Assembly (NCBI GenBank): GCA_021807595.1
Contig: JAKBCS010000022.1
Location: 1-48,683 of the forward strand
Length of the DNA stretch: 48,683 nucleotides
Origin: Planctomycetota bacterium
Lineage (GTDB): Bacteria > Planctomycetota > Planctomycetia > Gemmatales > Gemmataceae
Reading direction: 5' to 3'
In this document: positions 28,095-43,178 of the stretch, piece after piece
Position numbering within the stretch: the first letter of the stretch is position 1
Layout of the letters: each line of letters starts with the position of its first letter
The notes under the pieces: generated by a model
Seen by the model: only the letters and a program-made list of their open reading frames with translations
The model's database searches: none
Told to the model about the DNA's origin: nothing
Program-made: the position numbers and the translations under genes

Positions 28095-29210
28095 CTACGG
28101 TTCCATCTCCAGCGCGATCCGCATTTTGACCGTCTGCGGTTTTCGCTCCCAATGCCAGACGAAGTCGGCACGCTCCGATACCAGAGCCAGCGAGGCAAGC
28201 GTTCGCTTGTCGCGGTCGGCTTGGGCGATCCCCACAAAATGAGCGGTTATCTGCCCTTCCGTCGGTCTGCCGATTGGAAAGGACATCTCCAGATCGCCGG
28301 ACAACTCGATACGGGCCTCTTTCTCGGACCCAGCGAGGAGCTTGGCCGTCAGCGTCGCTTTCTTTAATTTGGAATCCGAGGTCTTCCAGTACGGCCCCGG
28401 TGGATAGCCGTACTGAAACAGCTTGCCGGCGATCTTTTCGGGGATCGTCCAGGTCGCATCCGCTTTCGCGTCGGCGGGAGGCAAGAACGCCTGCAACTCC
28501 TCGCCCGTCAATTCCACGCGATCGTTGCTCACGCCTCGATTGTCGCCCTTGGCATCGACGCGCGTCCAAATGTGGATAAATCGCCCCTCTTTTGTCTTTG
28601 GTTTTGCGTCGTGCTTTTCGGCGGCGCTGGCTCGAATCGCCTCGGCGTCGCGCGGCTTGAGCTTTTGCTCTTCGACGATCTTTTGCAGAAACGGCAGGAG
28701 ATTCTCAGCCTTATACGCCTTCTGCACGCGCTGGGTGGCCAACACGTCGCCGTTGGGCGCGACCACGAACACGCACACCGCGCCGCCTTCCATTTTCCGC
28801 CGTGCCCGTTCGGTGTCGAGGCGTTCGAGTTCCGCCTGTTCGTCGCCGCTTCGCTTGTCGCGCTGGTAGTCGTCGCGCGACAGCCAGACCGGCACGAAAT
28901 ACTGGGTGATGATCTCGATGATACGCGGGTCGGAGAGTGAACTCACTCTCATGTCGCGCGCGCCGTTTCAGCACCGCCCCGTCTCGATGTTGCCGTCGTG
29001 CGTGAACAGAAAAAGAGGCTGCTTCTCTCGTTCGCCGATGCGCCGGGCCGGCATCAGCGACGAAGTCCAGGGGATTTTGCGCCAGGCGTTGGTATCGCTG
29101 CCCTTAATGGCGTCGATGCGTTTGGAAATGGGATCGACCTCGCGTTGGTCGGCGGACGCTGTCAGGACGGCCAGCGCCGCAAGGGCGAGGACACTCGCTC
29201 GAAACTTCAT
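28095..29210 (-). CDS. Candidate selenoprotein: exported thioredoxin-fold protein with Cys-UGA motif
   Basis: From ATG 29210 (AAGGAGGC seven bases upstream) the frame encodes a signal peptide (FRASVLALAALAVLTASA), a linker with AWRKIPWTSSL, and QPLFLFTHDGNIETGRC, a thioredoxin-like strand leading to an active-site Cys80. Codon 81 is TGA (28968-28970). The frame continues without shift to 28095: NGARDM, then SDPRIIEIITQYFVPVWLSR, the expected thioredoxin-fold helix and strand, then a 220-residue C-terminal part. Without read-through the second half would start at Met 28952, which lacks a ribosome site. Read as selenocysteine, the product is 371 residues with a CU pair. A hairpin follows at the right distance. 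Recent nonsense mutation remains possible. Confidence 0.62.
28933..28950 (-). promoter_or_regulatory. SECIS-like hairpin downstream of the in-frame TGA
   Basis: On the minus strand the arms GAGAGTG (28950-28944) and CACTCTC (28939-28933) pair perfectly around loop AGTT. The stem begins 17 bases after the TGA and the loop 24 bases after it. Bacterial SECIS elements as described by the bSECISearch model need a stem of 4-16 bp, loop 16-37 bases from UGA and a G in the first two loop bases. All three hold here. Confidence 0.55.
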
Positions 29211-29340
29211 GGTCGCCTCCTTGTCGTAAAGATGGGGAACGACGTGTTATACCCCAAGGAACCGAAAGGATGCCAGCCGATCTTGCATCGCCGACCGGGA
29301 GAAGCTATGAGCCACGCTTATCCGAAACGGGAGGATGTCC

Positions 29341-30336
29341 ATGTCGCGGCGAATAATTGCAAGGTTATCGCTGGGTAGCATCGTGGCGTTACTGACGGCG
29401 GCGGGAACATGCCGGGCCGAACTCGTGTGTTCGGAGTCGGTGGTCGACAAGGGCGAGACGCGCAGCGGCGTGCCGTTGTCCCATCGATTCACCTTCGTCA
29501 ATCGCGGGGCCAACCCCGTCGAGATTACCGACGTTCGTCCGAGCTGCGGGTGTCTGGCTCCGAAGTTGGAACGCCGCATCGTGCCGCCGGGAGAGTCGGG
29601 CGAACTCTTGCTTGAAATCAACACTTTGACGCAGCCGGACGGGGAAAACGGCTGGCGCGCCACCTTGCGCTACAAGGACGGCGCGGGCGAACGAGAACTG
29701 CCGCTCTACGTCCGCGCCCGCGTCGTCCGCGAAATCGGGGTAGAACCGCCCGCGCTGGCCATCTACACCGATTCGTCGCTGGGCCATGAAATCGCGGTGA
29801 TCGATCGGCGAACGGAGCCGTTGATGGTGCGGGCCGTAGTGGCCTCGTCGCCGCACGTTCGCACGCATTTGGGCGAACTCAAACGCGATGCCGCCGGTCG
29901 TTGGCGGCGGTCGATTCGAGTGGAAGTGTTGGCCGACTGTCCCGAAGGAACCCACGAGGAGACGCTGCGCATCTGCACCTCCGATGCGCTCTACACCGAA
30001 CTGAAGGTCCCGTTCACGATCGTCAAGCGCGCCCGACTCCAGACGAGCGCCGCCCCCGCTTCGGTGGTGCTGACGGCGACGGGCAATGAACCCCTGCCGT
30101 CCCGCGTCGTGTTGTTGAGCGCGGCGGACGACCGCGAAGTTCGCATCGACCGAGTCGAGACGGATCACCCGGCGGTCGAATGCCGTTGGGCACAAGGTCC
30201 GGGACATCAGGCGACGCTGAAAATCCGCGTCGAACGCGGCCGCATAACCGGCGACCGCCTCCGCGCGTTCGTCCGCGTCCACCTCGGCCAACCGGCGGAG
30301 ACGATCCTTATCCCCGTTAGCTGCCTGCTTCGCTAA
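29341..30336 (+). CDS. Exported DUF1573-type protein
   Basis: A 331-residue protein with a signal peptide ([20 protein letters not shown]). The first mature domain is DUF1573-like: [20 protein letters not shown], then RPSCGCLAP with the typical CGC, an immunoglobulin-like beta domain. Two further beta-rich domains follow ([36 protein letters not shown]). Such proteins are periplasmic; their role is not established. ATG 29341 is preferred over 29335 because GGGAGG then lies six bases upstream. Its 3' end overlaps the converging cyclophilin gene by 20 bases. Confidence 0.8.
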
Positions 30337-30817
30337 CGCGCGCTGAAACGATGGCGACATCCTTGGTGGGCACGTTCTCATGGGGACCGCGTCGCCCGGT
30401 CGCTACCGCCTTGATCTTGTCCACCACATCCATGCCGGACACCACTTTGCCGAACACGCAGTACGGCGAACGGCGGTCGTCCAAGCCGCTGTTGTCCACC
30501 ACGTTGATGAAGAATTGCGCCGTGGCGCTGTGCAGATCGTTGGTGCGCGCCATGGCGATGGTTCCGCGCGCGTTCGACAGGCCGTTGGGCGCTTCGTTGC
30601 GGATGGGATCTTTGGGCTTTTTCTGCTTCAGACCCGGTTCAAATCCGCCGCCTTGAATCATGAAGTTGGGAATGACGCGATGAAAGATCGTGCCGTCGAA
30701 GAAGCCGTCTTCAACGTAGGAAAGGAAGTTGGCCACTGTCTCGGGCGCTTTGTCGGCGTCCAGCTCCAACTCGATGGCTCCGAGCGACGTTTCGAGAACG
30801 ACCAAGGTAGCGGGCAT
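30317..30817 (-). CDS. Cyclophilin-type peptidyl-prolyl isomerase, cytoplasmic
   Basis: A 166-residue cyclophilin that speeds proline isomerisation in protein folding. Active-site segments are [19 protein letters not shown] (Arg, Phe and Gln), [20 protein letters not shown] and [17 protein letters not shown]. It has no signal peptide, so it is probably cytoplasmic. ATG 30817 follows GGAGGG at seven bases; an upstream in-frame Met at 30844 lacks one. A paralogue with a lipoprotein signal lies 48 bases upstream on the same strand, so the two likely share a transcript. Confidence 0.93.
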
Positions 30818-30865
30818 GAATCCGCCCTCCAAACAAATAAGCACATCACGGATGGGTAAAGAAAT

Positions 30866-31522
30866 CTATTTCCTGTCGGCGCGGCGAATGGATTTGATGG
30901 TAACCTCCTCGGCCGGTACGTCGCCCATGACGGGTTGCCCTTGGATGGTGATTTCCTTCGTTGTCACTTTCTTGATTTTATCCACCACGTCCATGCCTTC
31001 GATGACCTTGCCGAACACGCAGTAGCGCGGCCGGTCGAGTTTGCCGCTGTTGTCCACGGTGTTGATGAAGAACTGCGCCGTGGCGCTATCGAGGGCGCTG
31101 GTGCGCGCCATGGCGATGGTGCCGCGCGTGTTCGACAAACCGTTGGGCGATTCGTTCTTGATGGGATCGCGCGTCTTTTTTTGCTTGCCCTTGAGGCCTT
31201 CGATGGACGTAACGTCTTTCAGTCCTGGCTCGAAACCGCCGCCCTGGATCATGAAATCTTCGATGACGCGGTGGAAAATCGTTTTGTCGTAAAACTTATC
31301 GTCCACATAGGTGAGAAAATTCTTGACCGTAATCGGCGCGTGGCCGTCATCGAGTTCGACCTTGATTGCGCCCATCGACGTGTCGATGATGACGACCGGC
31401 ATTTTGGCCTCGCCGCTCGCCTTGTCGGACTTCTTTTCATCCGCCACGCCGCTTCGATCCTCGGCGCAGGCAACGATGACGAGGGAGACGAGTGCCACGG
31501 TAAGAACGAGGTAACGCCGCAT
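30866..31522 (-). CDS. Cyclophilin-type peptidyl-prolyl isomerase, exported lipoprotein
   Basis: A 218-residue cyclophilin with the same core as its neighbour ([53 protein letters not shown]). It is preceded by a hydrophobic N-terminus ending IVAC, which fits a lipobox with Cys19, then a charged linker of 20 residues. It is probably a periplasmic folding catalyst anchored by lipid. An insertion (KDVTSIEGLKGKQKK) lies before DPIKNE, longer than in its paralogue. A 25-bp palindrome lies 59 bases upstream. Confidence 0.93.
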   Translation of the reverse strand: MRRYLVLTVALVSLVIVACAEDRSGVADEKKSDKASGEAKMPVVIIDTSMGAIKVELDDGHAPITVKNFLTYVDDKFYDKTIFHRVIEDFMIQGGGFEPGLKDVTSIEGLKGKQKKTRDPIKNESPNGLSNTRGTIAMARTSALDSATAQFFINTVDNSGKLDRPRYCVFGKVIEGMDVVDKIKKVTTKEITIQGQPVMGDVPAEEVTIKSIRRADRK

Positions 31523-33436: not shown

Positions 33437-33625
33437 TTAACAGTACAGCGCTACTCTAGCGAAGCGGACACTTTCCCCCCTTCTCCCCTGTACTCAGGGG
33501 AGAGGGGTCGGGGGTGAGGGGTGAGCGACGGAACACGACGTCGAAGCTGCTTTTTCCCCCCAAACCCCTCAACCCCTTTCCCCCCCTGAGTACACGGGGA
33601 GAGGGGAGTAGCGTTGTACGGTTAA
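33437..33625. mobile_element. MITE-like element with 20-bp terminal inverted repeats
   Basis: Left end 33437-33456 and right end 33606-33625 match as inverted repeats at 18 of 20 positions (outer bases TTAAC and GTTAA). The inside repeats the 9285 family core: CTCCCCTG and CAGGGGAG at about 33483-33502, and CCCCTGAGTACA near 33584. It is 189 bp and has no coding capacity. It fills the 306-base divergent gap between 33359 and 33666. A TTAA duplication at the ends is possible. Confidence 0.7.
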
Positions 33626-40065: not shown

Positions 40066-40175
40066 TCCCGGCGATAACCTACTCTCGCCCGCGAAGGACT
40101 ACCATTGGCCCTGGATGCTTAACGGCCGTGTTCGGAATGGGAACGGGTGTGACCATCCAGGTATGTTCACCGAGA
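40066..40175 (-). rRNA. rrf: 5S ribosomal RNA
   Basis: About 110 bases. On the minus strand it starts TCTCGGTG and ends CGCCGGGA, which pair as the 5S terminal helix with two G-U pairs. The conserved core CACACCCGTTCCCATTCCGA, followed by ACACGG and GTTAAGC, is present, as is GAGAGTAGG near the 3' end. Exact ends are within a few bases. Confidence 0.92.
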
Positions 40176-40184
40176 AAGCTCATA

Positions 40185-40240
40185 ATTTTATCCCTTGCGG
40201 TCGAGCATGTATGACATGCTGGATCCACATGGGATAAAAT
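40185..40240 (-). other. Structured 23S-5S spacer
   Basis: ATTTTATCCC (40185-40194) pairs with GGGATAAAAT (40231-40240), and inside it AGCATGT (40204-40210) pairs with ACATGCT (40214-40220) around loop ATG. This nested hairpin is probably an RNase III-type processing signal for the 5S precursor. Confidence 0.6.
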
Positions 40241-40312
40241 GGTTGTATAAAGATGGCAGGGTAAGTAATTGCATTATCGCATGATCCTGAGTGATCGAGA
40301 AAAGGATCAATG

Positions 40313-43178
<2,866 letters not shown>

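What the first reader, a model, noticed from the sequence alone, without database searches (positions are those of the whole stretch)
28933..28970. SECIS-like hairpin at the right distance from the TGA
Perfect 7-bp stem GAGAGTG/CACTCTC with loop AGTT; loop starts 24 bases after TGA, with G in the second loop position. This fits the published bacterial SECIS model (bSECISearch). A perfect stem at this place is less likely by chance, but coding constraint also acts here.
Basis: partly seen in the sequence, partly recalled or inferred. Interest (0 to 1): 0.7.

Follow-up and report, generated by a model that had tools for sequence, protein, structure and literature searches.

The report
Selenocysteine signal in planctomycete thioredoxin-like gene
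The small RNA hairpin is a real signal that tells the ribosome to read a stop codon as selenocysteine, in a secreted thioredoxin-like protein that belongs to a large, apparently uncatalogued family of planctomycete selenoproteins.

Summary
The hairpin is real and lies on the MINUS strand (28933-28950), inside gene 28095-29210(-), 24 nt after an in-frame UGA (28970-28968) at codon 81. It is a bacterial SECIS element. The four relatives from genome contigs (49-96% protein identity) all keep the UGA and the identical 18-nt hairpin. Of 93 non-redundant UGA-bearing homologues, 90 have a SECIS-type stem-loop, against 24 expected from synonymous resampling. Synonymous constraint peaks over the hairpin codons, and stems covary. 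Eighteen homologues without UGA lack it at that place. The genome has selB and a selD that itself carries an in-frame UGA. selA and tRNA-Sec are not in this assembly, but congeners have both, and the contig breaks just beside where selA should be. The protein has a DsbH-like thioredoxin fold (Z 11.3), with Sec at the first Cys of CxxC. The family spans Planctomycetota. None of 11 members scanned passes a cut-off for a thioredoxin or selenoprotein model in Pfam or NCBIfam, and I found no matching entry in a 2026 inventory of 119 selenoprotein families.

The parts
28095..29210 (-). selenoprotein gene, 371 codons plus TAG stop, one in-frame UGA
   Evidence: Translation with TGA=U is open from ATG to TAG; homologues at 49-96% identity in genome contigs are open in the same way.
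28968..28970 (-). in-frame UGA, codon 81, read as selenocysteine (motif GRC-U-NGA)
   Evidence: UGA at the aligned place in 108 of 116 homologous frames extracted; in the profile alignments to solved thioredoxin folds it meets the first Cys of CxxC or CxxS.
28951..28967 (-). 17-nt spacer between UGA and stem
   Evidence: Sequence.
28933..28950 (-). bacterial SECIS stem-loop: 7-bp stem GAGAGTG/CACTCTC, loop AGTT (24 nt after UGA), loop ends A and U able to pair, GU at loop positions 2-3
   Evidence: Identical in four relatives, synonymous constraint, codon-choice probability, covariation, absence at this place from non-UGA homologues.
28971..28973 (-). Cys80 codon next to the Sec codon (CU pair)
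   Evidence: Sequence; Cys or CxU spacing in most homologues, Ala in L030.
29151..29210 (-). N-terminal hydrophobic stretch, probable signal peptide
   Evidence: Read from the translation MKFRASVLALAALAVLTASA; inference, no signal-peptide program was available.
28656..29093 (-). thioredoxin-fold domain, residues 40-185
   Evidence: AlphaFold2 model, mean pLDDT 77.6; VIA-align Z 11.3 to 7tkv_A and 11.2 to DsbH 2ju5.
28104..28583 (-). C-terminal beta-rich domain, residues about 210-369, no assigned family
   Evidence: Model secondary structure; no Pfam match.

Best explanation
The hairpin is a bacterial SECIS element. In the mRNA of gene 28095-29210(-), SelB carrying Sec-tRNA-Sec binds the GU-containing apical loop and upper stem 24 nt after the UGA and delivers selenocysteine to the ribosome stalled at that UGA, instead of termination. 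The product is a 371-residue, probably exported thioredoxin-fold oxidoreductase, in which Sec takes the place of the first (nucleophilic) Cys of CxxC and sits next to Cys80. Shown here: the gene, the UGA, the hairpin, its conservation and covariation, its loss where UGA is lost, selB and a UGA-bearing selD in the same genome, and selA plus tRNA-Sec in congeners. Inferred: SelB binding, Sec insertion, export, and redox activity.
For: Four of four relatives at 96, 60, 49 and 49% identity keep UGA and the identical 18-nt hairpin including synonymous positions. Class-1 homologues: synonymous identity excess 0.23-0.75 at codons +7 to +12, mostly under 0.2 elsewhere. 90 of 93 UGA sites have a 5-bp or longer stem with a G[G/U] loop 16-37 nt away; 24.2 expected from synonymous resampling; 306 of 1838 other codons of the same genes. 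Covariation: class 1 score 0.265 against 0.183 shuffled and 0.040-0.097 slid; class 2 score 0.787 against 0.201 and 0.035-0.239. Loop ends covary A-U, G-U, G-C around an invariant GU, as in the published model N1-G[G/U]-N-N2 (PMC13188914). Non-UGA homologues: 4 of 18 have 5 bp or more and 1 of 18 has 6 or more, none with the loop at +18 or +24. selB over cut-off; selD over cut-off with in-frame UGA in the motif ASCAGUAGK and its own GUU-loop hairpin at +33. tRNA-Sec or selA in 90 of 94 class genomes with a homologue against 137 of 303 without.
Against: No selA and no tRNA-Sec over cut-off in the window's own assembly. Against a true loss: contig C81, with selB, starts at the base matching 22 nt past selA in congener G177, the assembly has 282 contigs, and selD keeps its UGA. 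For tRNA-Sec the flank that is present (C179) runs on into other sequence at a dispersed repeat, so its absence is less well explained. Free energy alone is not exceptional (z -1.66). Three UGA homologues (of 93) have no stem of 5 bp or more in the allowed range. No experiment.
Confidence: 0.96

Rival explanations
1. The stem is a by-product of coding: the peptide MRVSSLS is conserved, and its codons happen to form a palindrome.
For: The peptide is conserved in the closest relatives, and a stem with G-U pairs has probability 1.5e-3 from codon usage, which is not vanishing for one gene.
Against: Rare codons are kept at every synonymous site at 49% protein identity; constraint peaks on the hairpin codons; changes in the stem are compensated (V to A: T-A to C-G; T with L to F: G-C to A-T; SS to GP: A-U to G-C). 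Class-2 homologues with other peptides keep a stem-loop 6 nt nearer the UGA with strong covariation.
Confidence: 0.01
2. UGA is read as Trp or by simple readthrough, and the hairpin is a stimulator of readthrough, not a SECIS.
For: A stem-loop 3' of a stop codon can also stimulate readthrough (recalled, not tested).
Against: UGA is used as an ordinary stop (5 of the 13 window ORFs counted). In profile alignments the UGA column meets Cys, not Trp, and 5 of 18 non-UGA homologues have Cys there, none Trp. selB and a UGA-bearing selD are in the genome, and the family tracks Sec machinery.
Confidence: 0.02
3. The gene is a pseudogene, or the TGA is a sequencing or assembly error.
For: MAG sequence with 282 contigs; selA and tRNA-Sec are missing from this assembly.
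Against: The same single UGA at the same codon in independent genomes across class and phylum, with protein conservation continuing downstream to the C-terminus.
Confidence: 0.01

Closest known systems
Bacterial SECIS element (consensus model as given in PMC13188914, section 5; section read)
   Same: Immediately 3' of an in-frame UGA within the coding region; 7-bp upper stem, 4-nt loop, 24-nt spacing, GU in the loop flanked by bases that can pair (A-U, G-C), energy below -7.5 kcal/mol.
   Different: None of the tested constraints is broken. Homologous genes in one protein family use two layouts, loop AGUU/GGUC at +24 and loop CGUGN at +18.
Thioredox_DsbH / DUF255 (PF03190) and DsbH, DsbD-gamma thioredoxin folds
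   Same: Predicted fold of residues 40-185 (Z 11.3 to 7tkv_A, 11.2 to 2ju5, 9.6 to DsbD-gamma 2fwe); the UGA column aligns with the first Cys of CxxC in 3ira.
   Different: First Cys replaced by Sec, second by Ala or Gly (UNGA, UNNG, UGYA); an extra C-terminal beta-rich domain; no Pfam match for the window protein, and DsbH scores below the gathering cut-off in four relatives.
VPGUxxT family thioredoxin-like (seleno)protein, NF041383
   Same: Thioredoxin-like selenoprotein; weak profile similarity over the thioredoxin part (13.1 bits).
   Different: Far below its cut-off of 275 bits; other motif around Sec.
Selenophosphate synthetase SelD with Sec
   Same: Another UGA-bearing gene in the same genome with a GU-loop hairpin.
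   Different: Unrelated protein; hairpin loop at +33.

Membership tests
bacterial SECIS element | apical loop 16-37 nt after the UGA | tested here: met
   24 nt.
bacterial SECIS element | loop of 3-9 nt and upper stem of 4-16 bp | tested here: met
   4-nt loop, 7-bp stem.
bacterial SECIS element | G in one of the first two loop positions, mostly N1-G[G/U]-N-N2 with N1 and N2 pairing | tested here: met
   A-G-U-U; across homologues A-U, G-U and G-C at N1-N2 around invariant GU.
bacterial SECIS element | minimum free energy at or below -7.5 kcal/mol | tested here: met
   -18.4 kcal/mol for the 54 nt from UGA.
bacterial SECIS element | conserved in UGA-bearing homologues, lost in non-UGA homologues | tested here: met
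   90 of 93 (5 bp or more) against 4 of 18.
bacterial SECIS element | binds SelB and directs Sec insertion | not testable with these tools
   Needs experiment.
selenoprotein | in-frame UGA aligned with redox-active Cys of homologues | tested here: met
   First Cys of CxxC or CxxS in 3ira, 3f9u, 3ph9, 2lst profile alignments; Cys in 5 of 18 non-UGA homologues, the rest Ser 6, Asp 3, Gly 2, Pro 2.
selenoprotein | Sec machinery (selA, selB, selD, tRNA-Sec) in the genome | tested here: inconclusive
   selB and selD found; selA and tRNA-Sec not in this assembly but in all three congeners; contig break beside selA.
Thioredox_DsbH (PF03190) | Pfam gathering score | tested here: not met
   No match for the window protein at E <= 1; 14.1, 13.9, 17.1 and 21.6 bits against 27 in four of ten relatives.
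Thioredox_DsbH (PF03190) | thioredoxin fold of the DsbH type | tested here: met
   Z 11.3, rmsd 3.1 over 127 residues to 7tkv_A.
VPGUxxT thioredoxin-like (NF041383) | curated NCBIfam cut-off 275 bits | tested here: not met
   13.1 bits; relatives 12.3-17.2 bits.

The most novel reading that the evidence does not exclude
The window gene belongs to a phylum-wide, multi-copy family of probably exported thioredoxin-fold selenoproteins of Planctomycetota that no catalogue lists. In it the SECIS has moved by two codons and changed its loop type between homologous proteins, while the protein sequence follows the RNA (Leu to Phe, Ser-Ser to Gly-Pro in step with base pairs). Both layouts occur in one genome (G348: L029 and L073; G244: L027 and L084), so one decoding system presumably reads both.
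Probability: 0.7. Interest if true: 0.6.

Novelty: new member of a known kind. Interest (0 to 1): 0.5.

Why it matters
Standard annotation would cut this gene at the UGA (one search lists only 28095-28952, which starts after it), so a conserved, often multi-copy protein family of Planctomycetota would be misread as fragments. The family would enlarge the known planctomycete selenoproteome and offers about a hundred natural variants of a bacterial SECIS within one protein family. That makes SECIS recognition (invariant GU, pairing loop ends, spacing +18 or +24) directly testable.

Tried and rejected
Free energy of the local fold: not significant alone (z -1.66). Rfam at gathering threshold: only rRNAs in the window. 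Pattern scan of 397 genomes had the wrong spacing (13 N before ATG, 15 needed), so its 0 of 397 means nothing, not even for the window itself; not repeated because the genome search was capped. One search scanned a wrong 33-aa stretch and is not used. One search aligned stretches with a wrong offset and is not used. Gene neighbourhood: conserved only in the near-identical relative L018, none in six other loci, so no operon clue. PDB by Foldseek: no match at E <= 0.001; best is the Thioredox_DsbH protein 7tkv_B at 1.4e-3. The C-terminal domain was not predicted alone, so nothing is said about its fold. No covariance model was built. In the phylum search I looked at sequence for 19 loci with UGA and 10 without only; the other rows are cited as counts.

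Literature: searches. Read: PMC13188914 sections 5 and 7 (parts 1 and 2 of 3) and passages; passages of PMC4807772, PMC12013277, PMC1242214, PMC5330540. PMC4807772 reports Sec machinery and putative selenoproteins in planctomycetes, but its list is in a supplement that I could not read. PMC13188914 mentions a groundwater MAG survey (its reference 66) that I did not find. Either may hold this family, so 'uncatalogued' is limited to these searches.

Full report
The feature. The finding gives plus-strand coordinates, but the gene is on the minus strand: 28095-29210, ATG to TAG, 371 codons, open only if the TGA at 28970-28968 (codon 81) is read as a residue. The context is HDGNIETGRC-U-NGARDMRVSSLS. 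Seventeen bases after the TGA begins GAGAGTG-AGTT-CACTCTC (28950-28933), a perfect 7-bp stem whose loop starts 24 nt after the TGA.

Not chance. Enumerating all 31104 encodings of RVSSLS with the codon usage of eleven window ORFs, a perfect Watson-Crick stem in this register has probability 2.7e-5, and 1.5e-3 with G-U pairs allowed. The stem needs AGA, AGT and TCA, at 2.9%, 9.4% and 1.7% of their amino acids. The folding energy by itself would not have convinced (z -1.66).

Relatives. A genome-contig scan found four loci, all planctomycete MAGs, at 96, 60, 49 and 49% identity. All four have TGA at the same codon and the identical 18-nt hairpin. In 397 genomes of the class, 94 have a homologue at E <= 0.001. 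I extracted 116 homologous frames, of which 108 have an in-frame TGA at the motif and 8 do not. Two layouts exist. Class 1 (18 of 93 non-redundant sites, including the window) has loop AGUU or GGUC at +24: 14 of 18 keep all seven pairs in register, L066 loses the first pair, L070, L036 and L037 pair one base over with a GUU loop, and 18 of 18 keep GU at +26/+27. Class 2 (75 of 93) mostly has loop CGUGN at +18 with 5-7 pairs.

RNA-level selection. Comparing synonymous codon identity with the expectation from pooled usage, class 1 shows excess 0.23, 0.64, 0.75, 0.24, 0.49 and 0.30 at codons +7 to +12; class 2 shows 0.35, 0.57, 0.68, 0.59 and 0.40 at +5 to +9. Most other codons from -22 to +30 lie below 0.2; a few class-1 columns with small numbers of pairs, or driven by the closest relatives, reach 0.3-0.4. 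One class-2 column outside the stem, +1, is also at 0.36. A search for stems of at least 5 bp with a G[G/U] loop 16-37 nt from the UGA hits 90 of 93 sites; synonymous resampling predicts 24.2, and other codons of the same genes give 306 of 1838. For 6 bp the figures are 70, 11.2 and 153 of 1838; for 7 bp 30, 4.0 and 70 of 1838.

Covariation. Class 1 (17 sequences): 92.6% of cells paired, covariation score 0.265 against 0.183 in shuffles (0 of 500 as high) and at most 0.097 for slid structures; C-G 8 / U-A 6 at one pair, G-C to A-U at another, and A-U 12, G-U 3, G-C 2 at the loop ends. The number of further pair types is not above shuffles (6 against 6.6), and the number of pairs with double changes only weakly so (44 of 500 as high). 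Class 2 (66 sequences): score 0.787 against 0.201 in shuffles and at most 0.239 slid, with five of six pairs changed on both sides. In L030 the change to Thr is matched by Leu to Phe, and in L031 and L032 Ser-Ser becomes Gly-Pro in step with the pair: the protein follows the RNA.

Control without UGA. Eighteen homologues with no stop at the site have Ser (6), Cys (5), Asp (3), Gly (2) or Pro (2) there. Four of 18 have a 5-bp stem or longer somewhere in range and one has 6 or more, none with its loop at +18 or +24.

Machinery. The window's genome has selB over cut-off (C81) and selD over cut-off with one in-frame UGA in ASCAGUAGK, which I take from memory to be the known Sec position of SelD, followed by a GCGCAG-GUU-CUGCGC hairpin at +33. 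selA is not found, and the tRNA-Sec model finds only Ser, Leu, Tyr and other tRNAs below cut-off. All three congeners in the set have both genes, and ARAGORN confirms tRNA-SeC in two of them. In congener G177 selA occupies C42:778-2139, and the window genome's contig C81 begins at the base matching 2161, so an assembly gap is the simplest reading for selA. For tRNA-Sec one flank is present up to a dispersed repeat, after which the contig differs; that absence stays open. In the class, tRNA-Sec or selA is found in 90 of 94 genomes with a homologue and 137 of 303 without. The four exceptions are the window genome, G153 (88% complete), and G029 and G255, whose matches contain no stop.

Protein. 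An AlphaFold2 model from five sequences (pLDDT 77.6, pTM 0.63) matches DsbH-type thioredoxin folds over residues 40-185 (Z 11.3 to 7tkv_A, 11.2 to 2ju5, 11.0 to 3f9u, 10.7 to 3ira). The loop just after Sec is poorly modelled (82-88 under 50). A profile of 24 members aligns the Sec column with the first Cys of CxxC (CxxS in 3ph9) in all four solved structures listed (E 2.5e-4 to 0.14). So Sec takes the nucleophile position, the second Cys is Ala or Gly, and a Cys or CxU neighbour precedes it. An N-terminal hydrophobic stretch suggests export (inference).

Known or new. The window protein has no Pfam match and only a 13-bit NCBIfam similarity to VPGUxxT proteins, cut-off 275. Ten relatives pass no thioredoxin or selenoprotein model; the only match over cut-off is a DNRLRE domain at the far end of L036. 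The phylum search found the family in 156 of 372 genomes. Table 1 of PMC13188914, a 2026 inventory of 119 families and subfamilies, has no entry that I can match to it; entries are names and short motifs, so this is not proof. The SECIS itself fits the published model. I therefore call it a new member of a known kind: an ordinary kind of element in an apparently uncatalogued selenoprotein family.

Noticed in passing
L167 (G000:C218:694-1620, minus): selD of the same genome carries an in-frame UGA (ASCAGUAGK), so SelD is probably itself a selenoprotein; a perfect 6-bp hairpin with loop GUU lies 33 nt downstream.
   Followed up: partly
window 33473-33624: Copy of a dispersed repeat of about 150 bp with inverted arms; a query holding one congener copy gave 134 matches in the genome, many at contig ends, and it interrupts the region where tRNA-Sec is expected.
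   Followed up: no
L147:5304-5449 and matches in G000: A second stretch of about 145 bp in the congener's selA-selB region matches about 30 places in the window's genome at 65-84% identity; nature unknown.
   Followed up: no
window 40066-43176 (minus): 23S and 5S rRNA genes without a 16S rRNA or tRNA gene in the window; unlinked rRNA genes are known in planctomycetes (recalled).
   Followed up: no
window 29335-30336 (+), 30317-30844 (-), 30866-31522 (-): Beside the selenoprotein gene lie a DUF1573 gene and two neighbouring cyclophilin-type prolyl isomerase genes; the order is kept only in the near-identical relative L018.
   Followed up: partly
L067, L035 (Gly), L069, L189, L196 (Asp), L071, L190 (Pro), L135, L191-L195 (Ser): In most non-UGA family members the Sec position is not Cys but Ser, Asp, Gly or Pro, suggesting paralogues without the redox residue.
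   Followed up: partly
G348 (L029, L073, L077), G244 (L027, L084, L145): Single genomes hold both SECIS layouts, so the layouts are not dialects of different lineages.
   Followed up: partly
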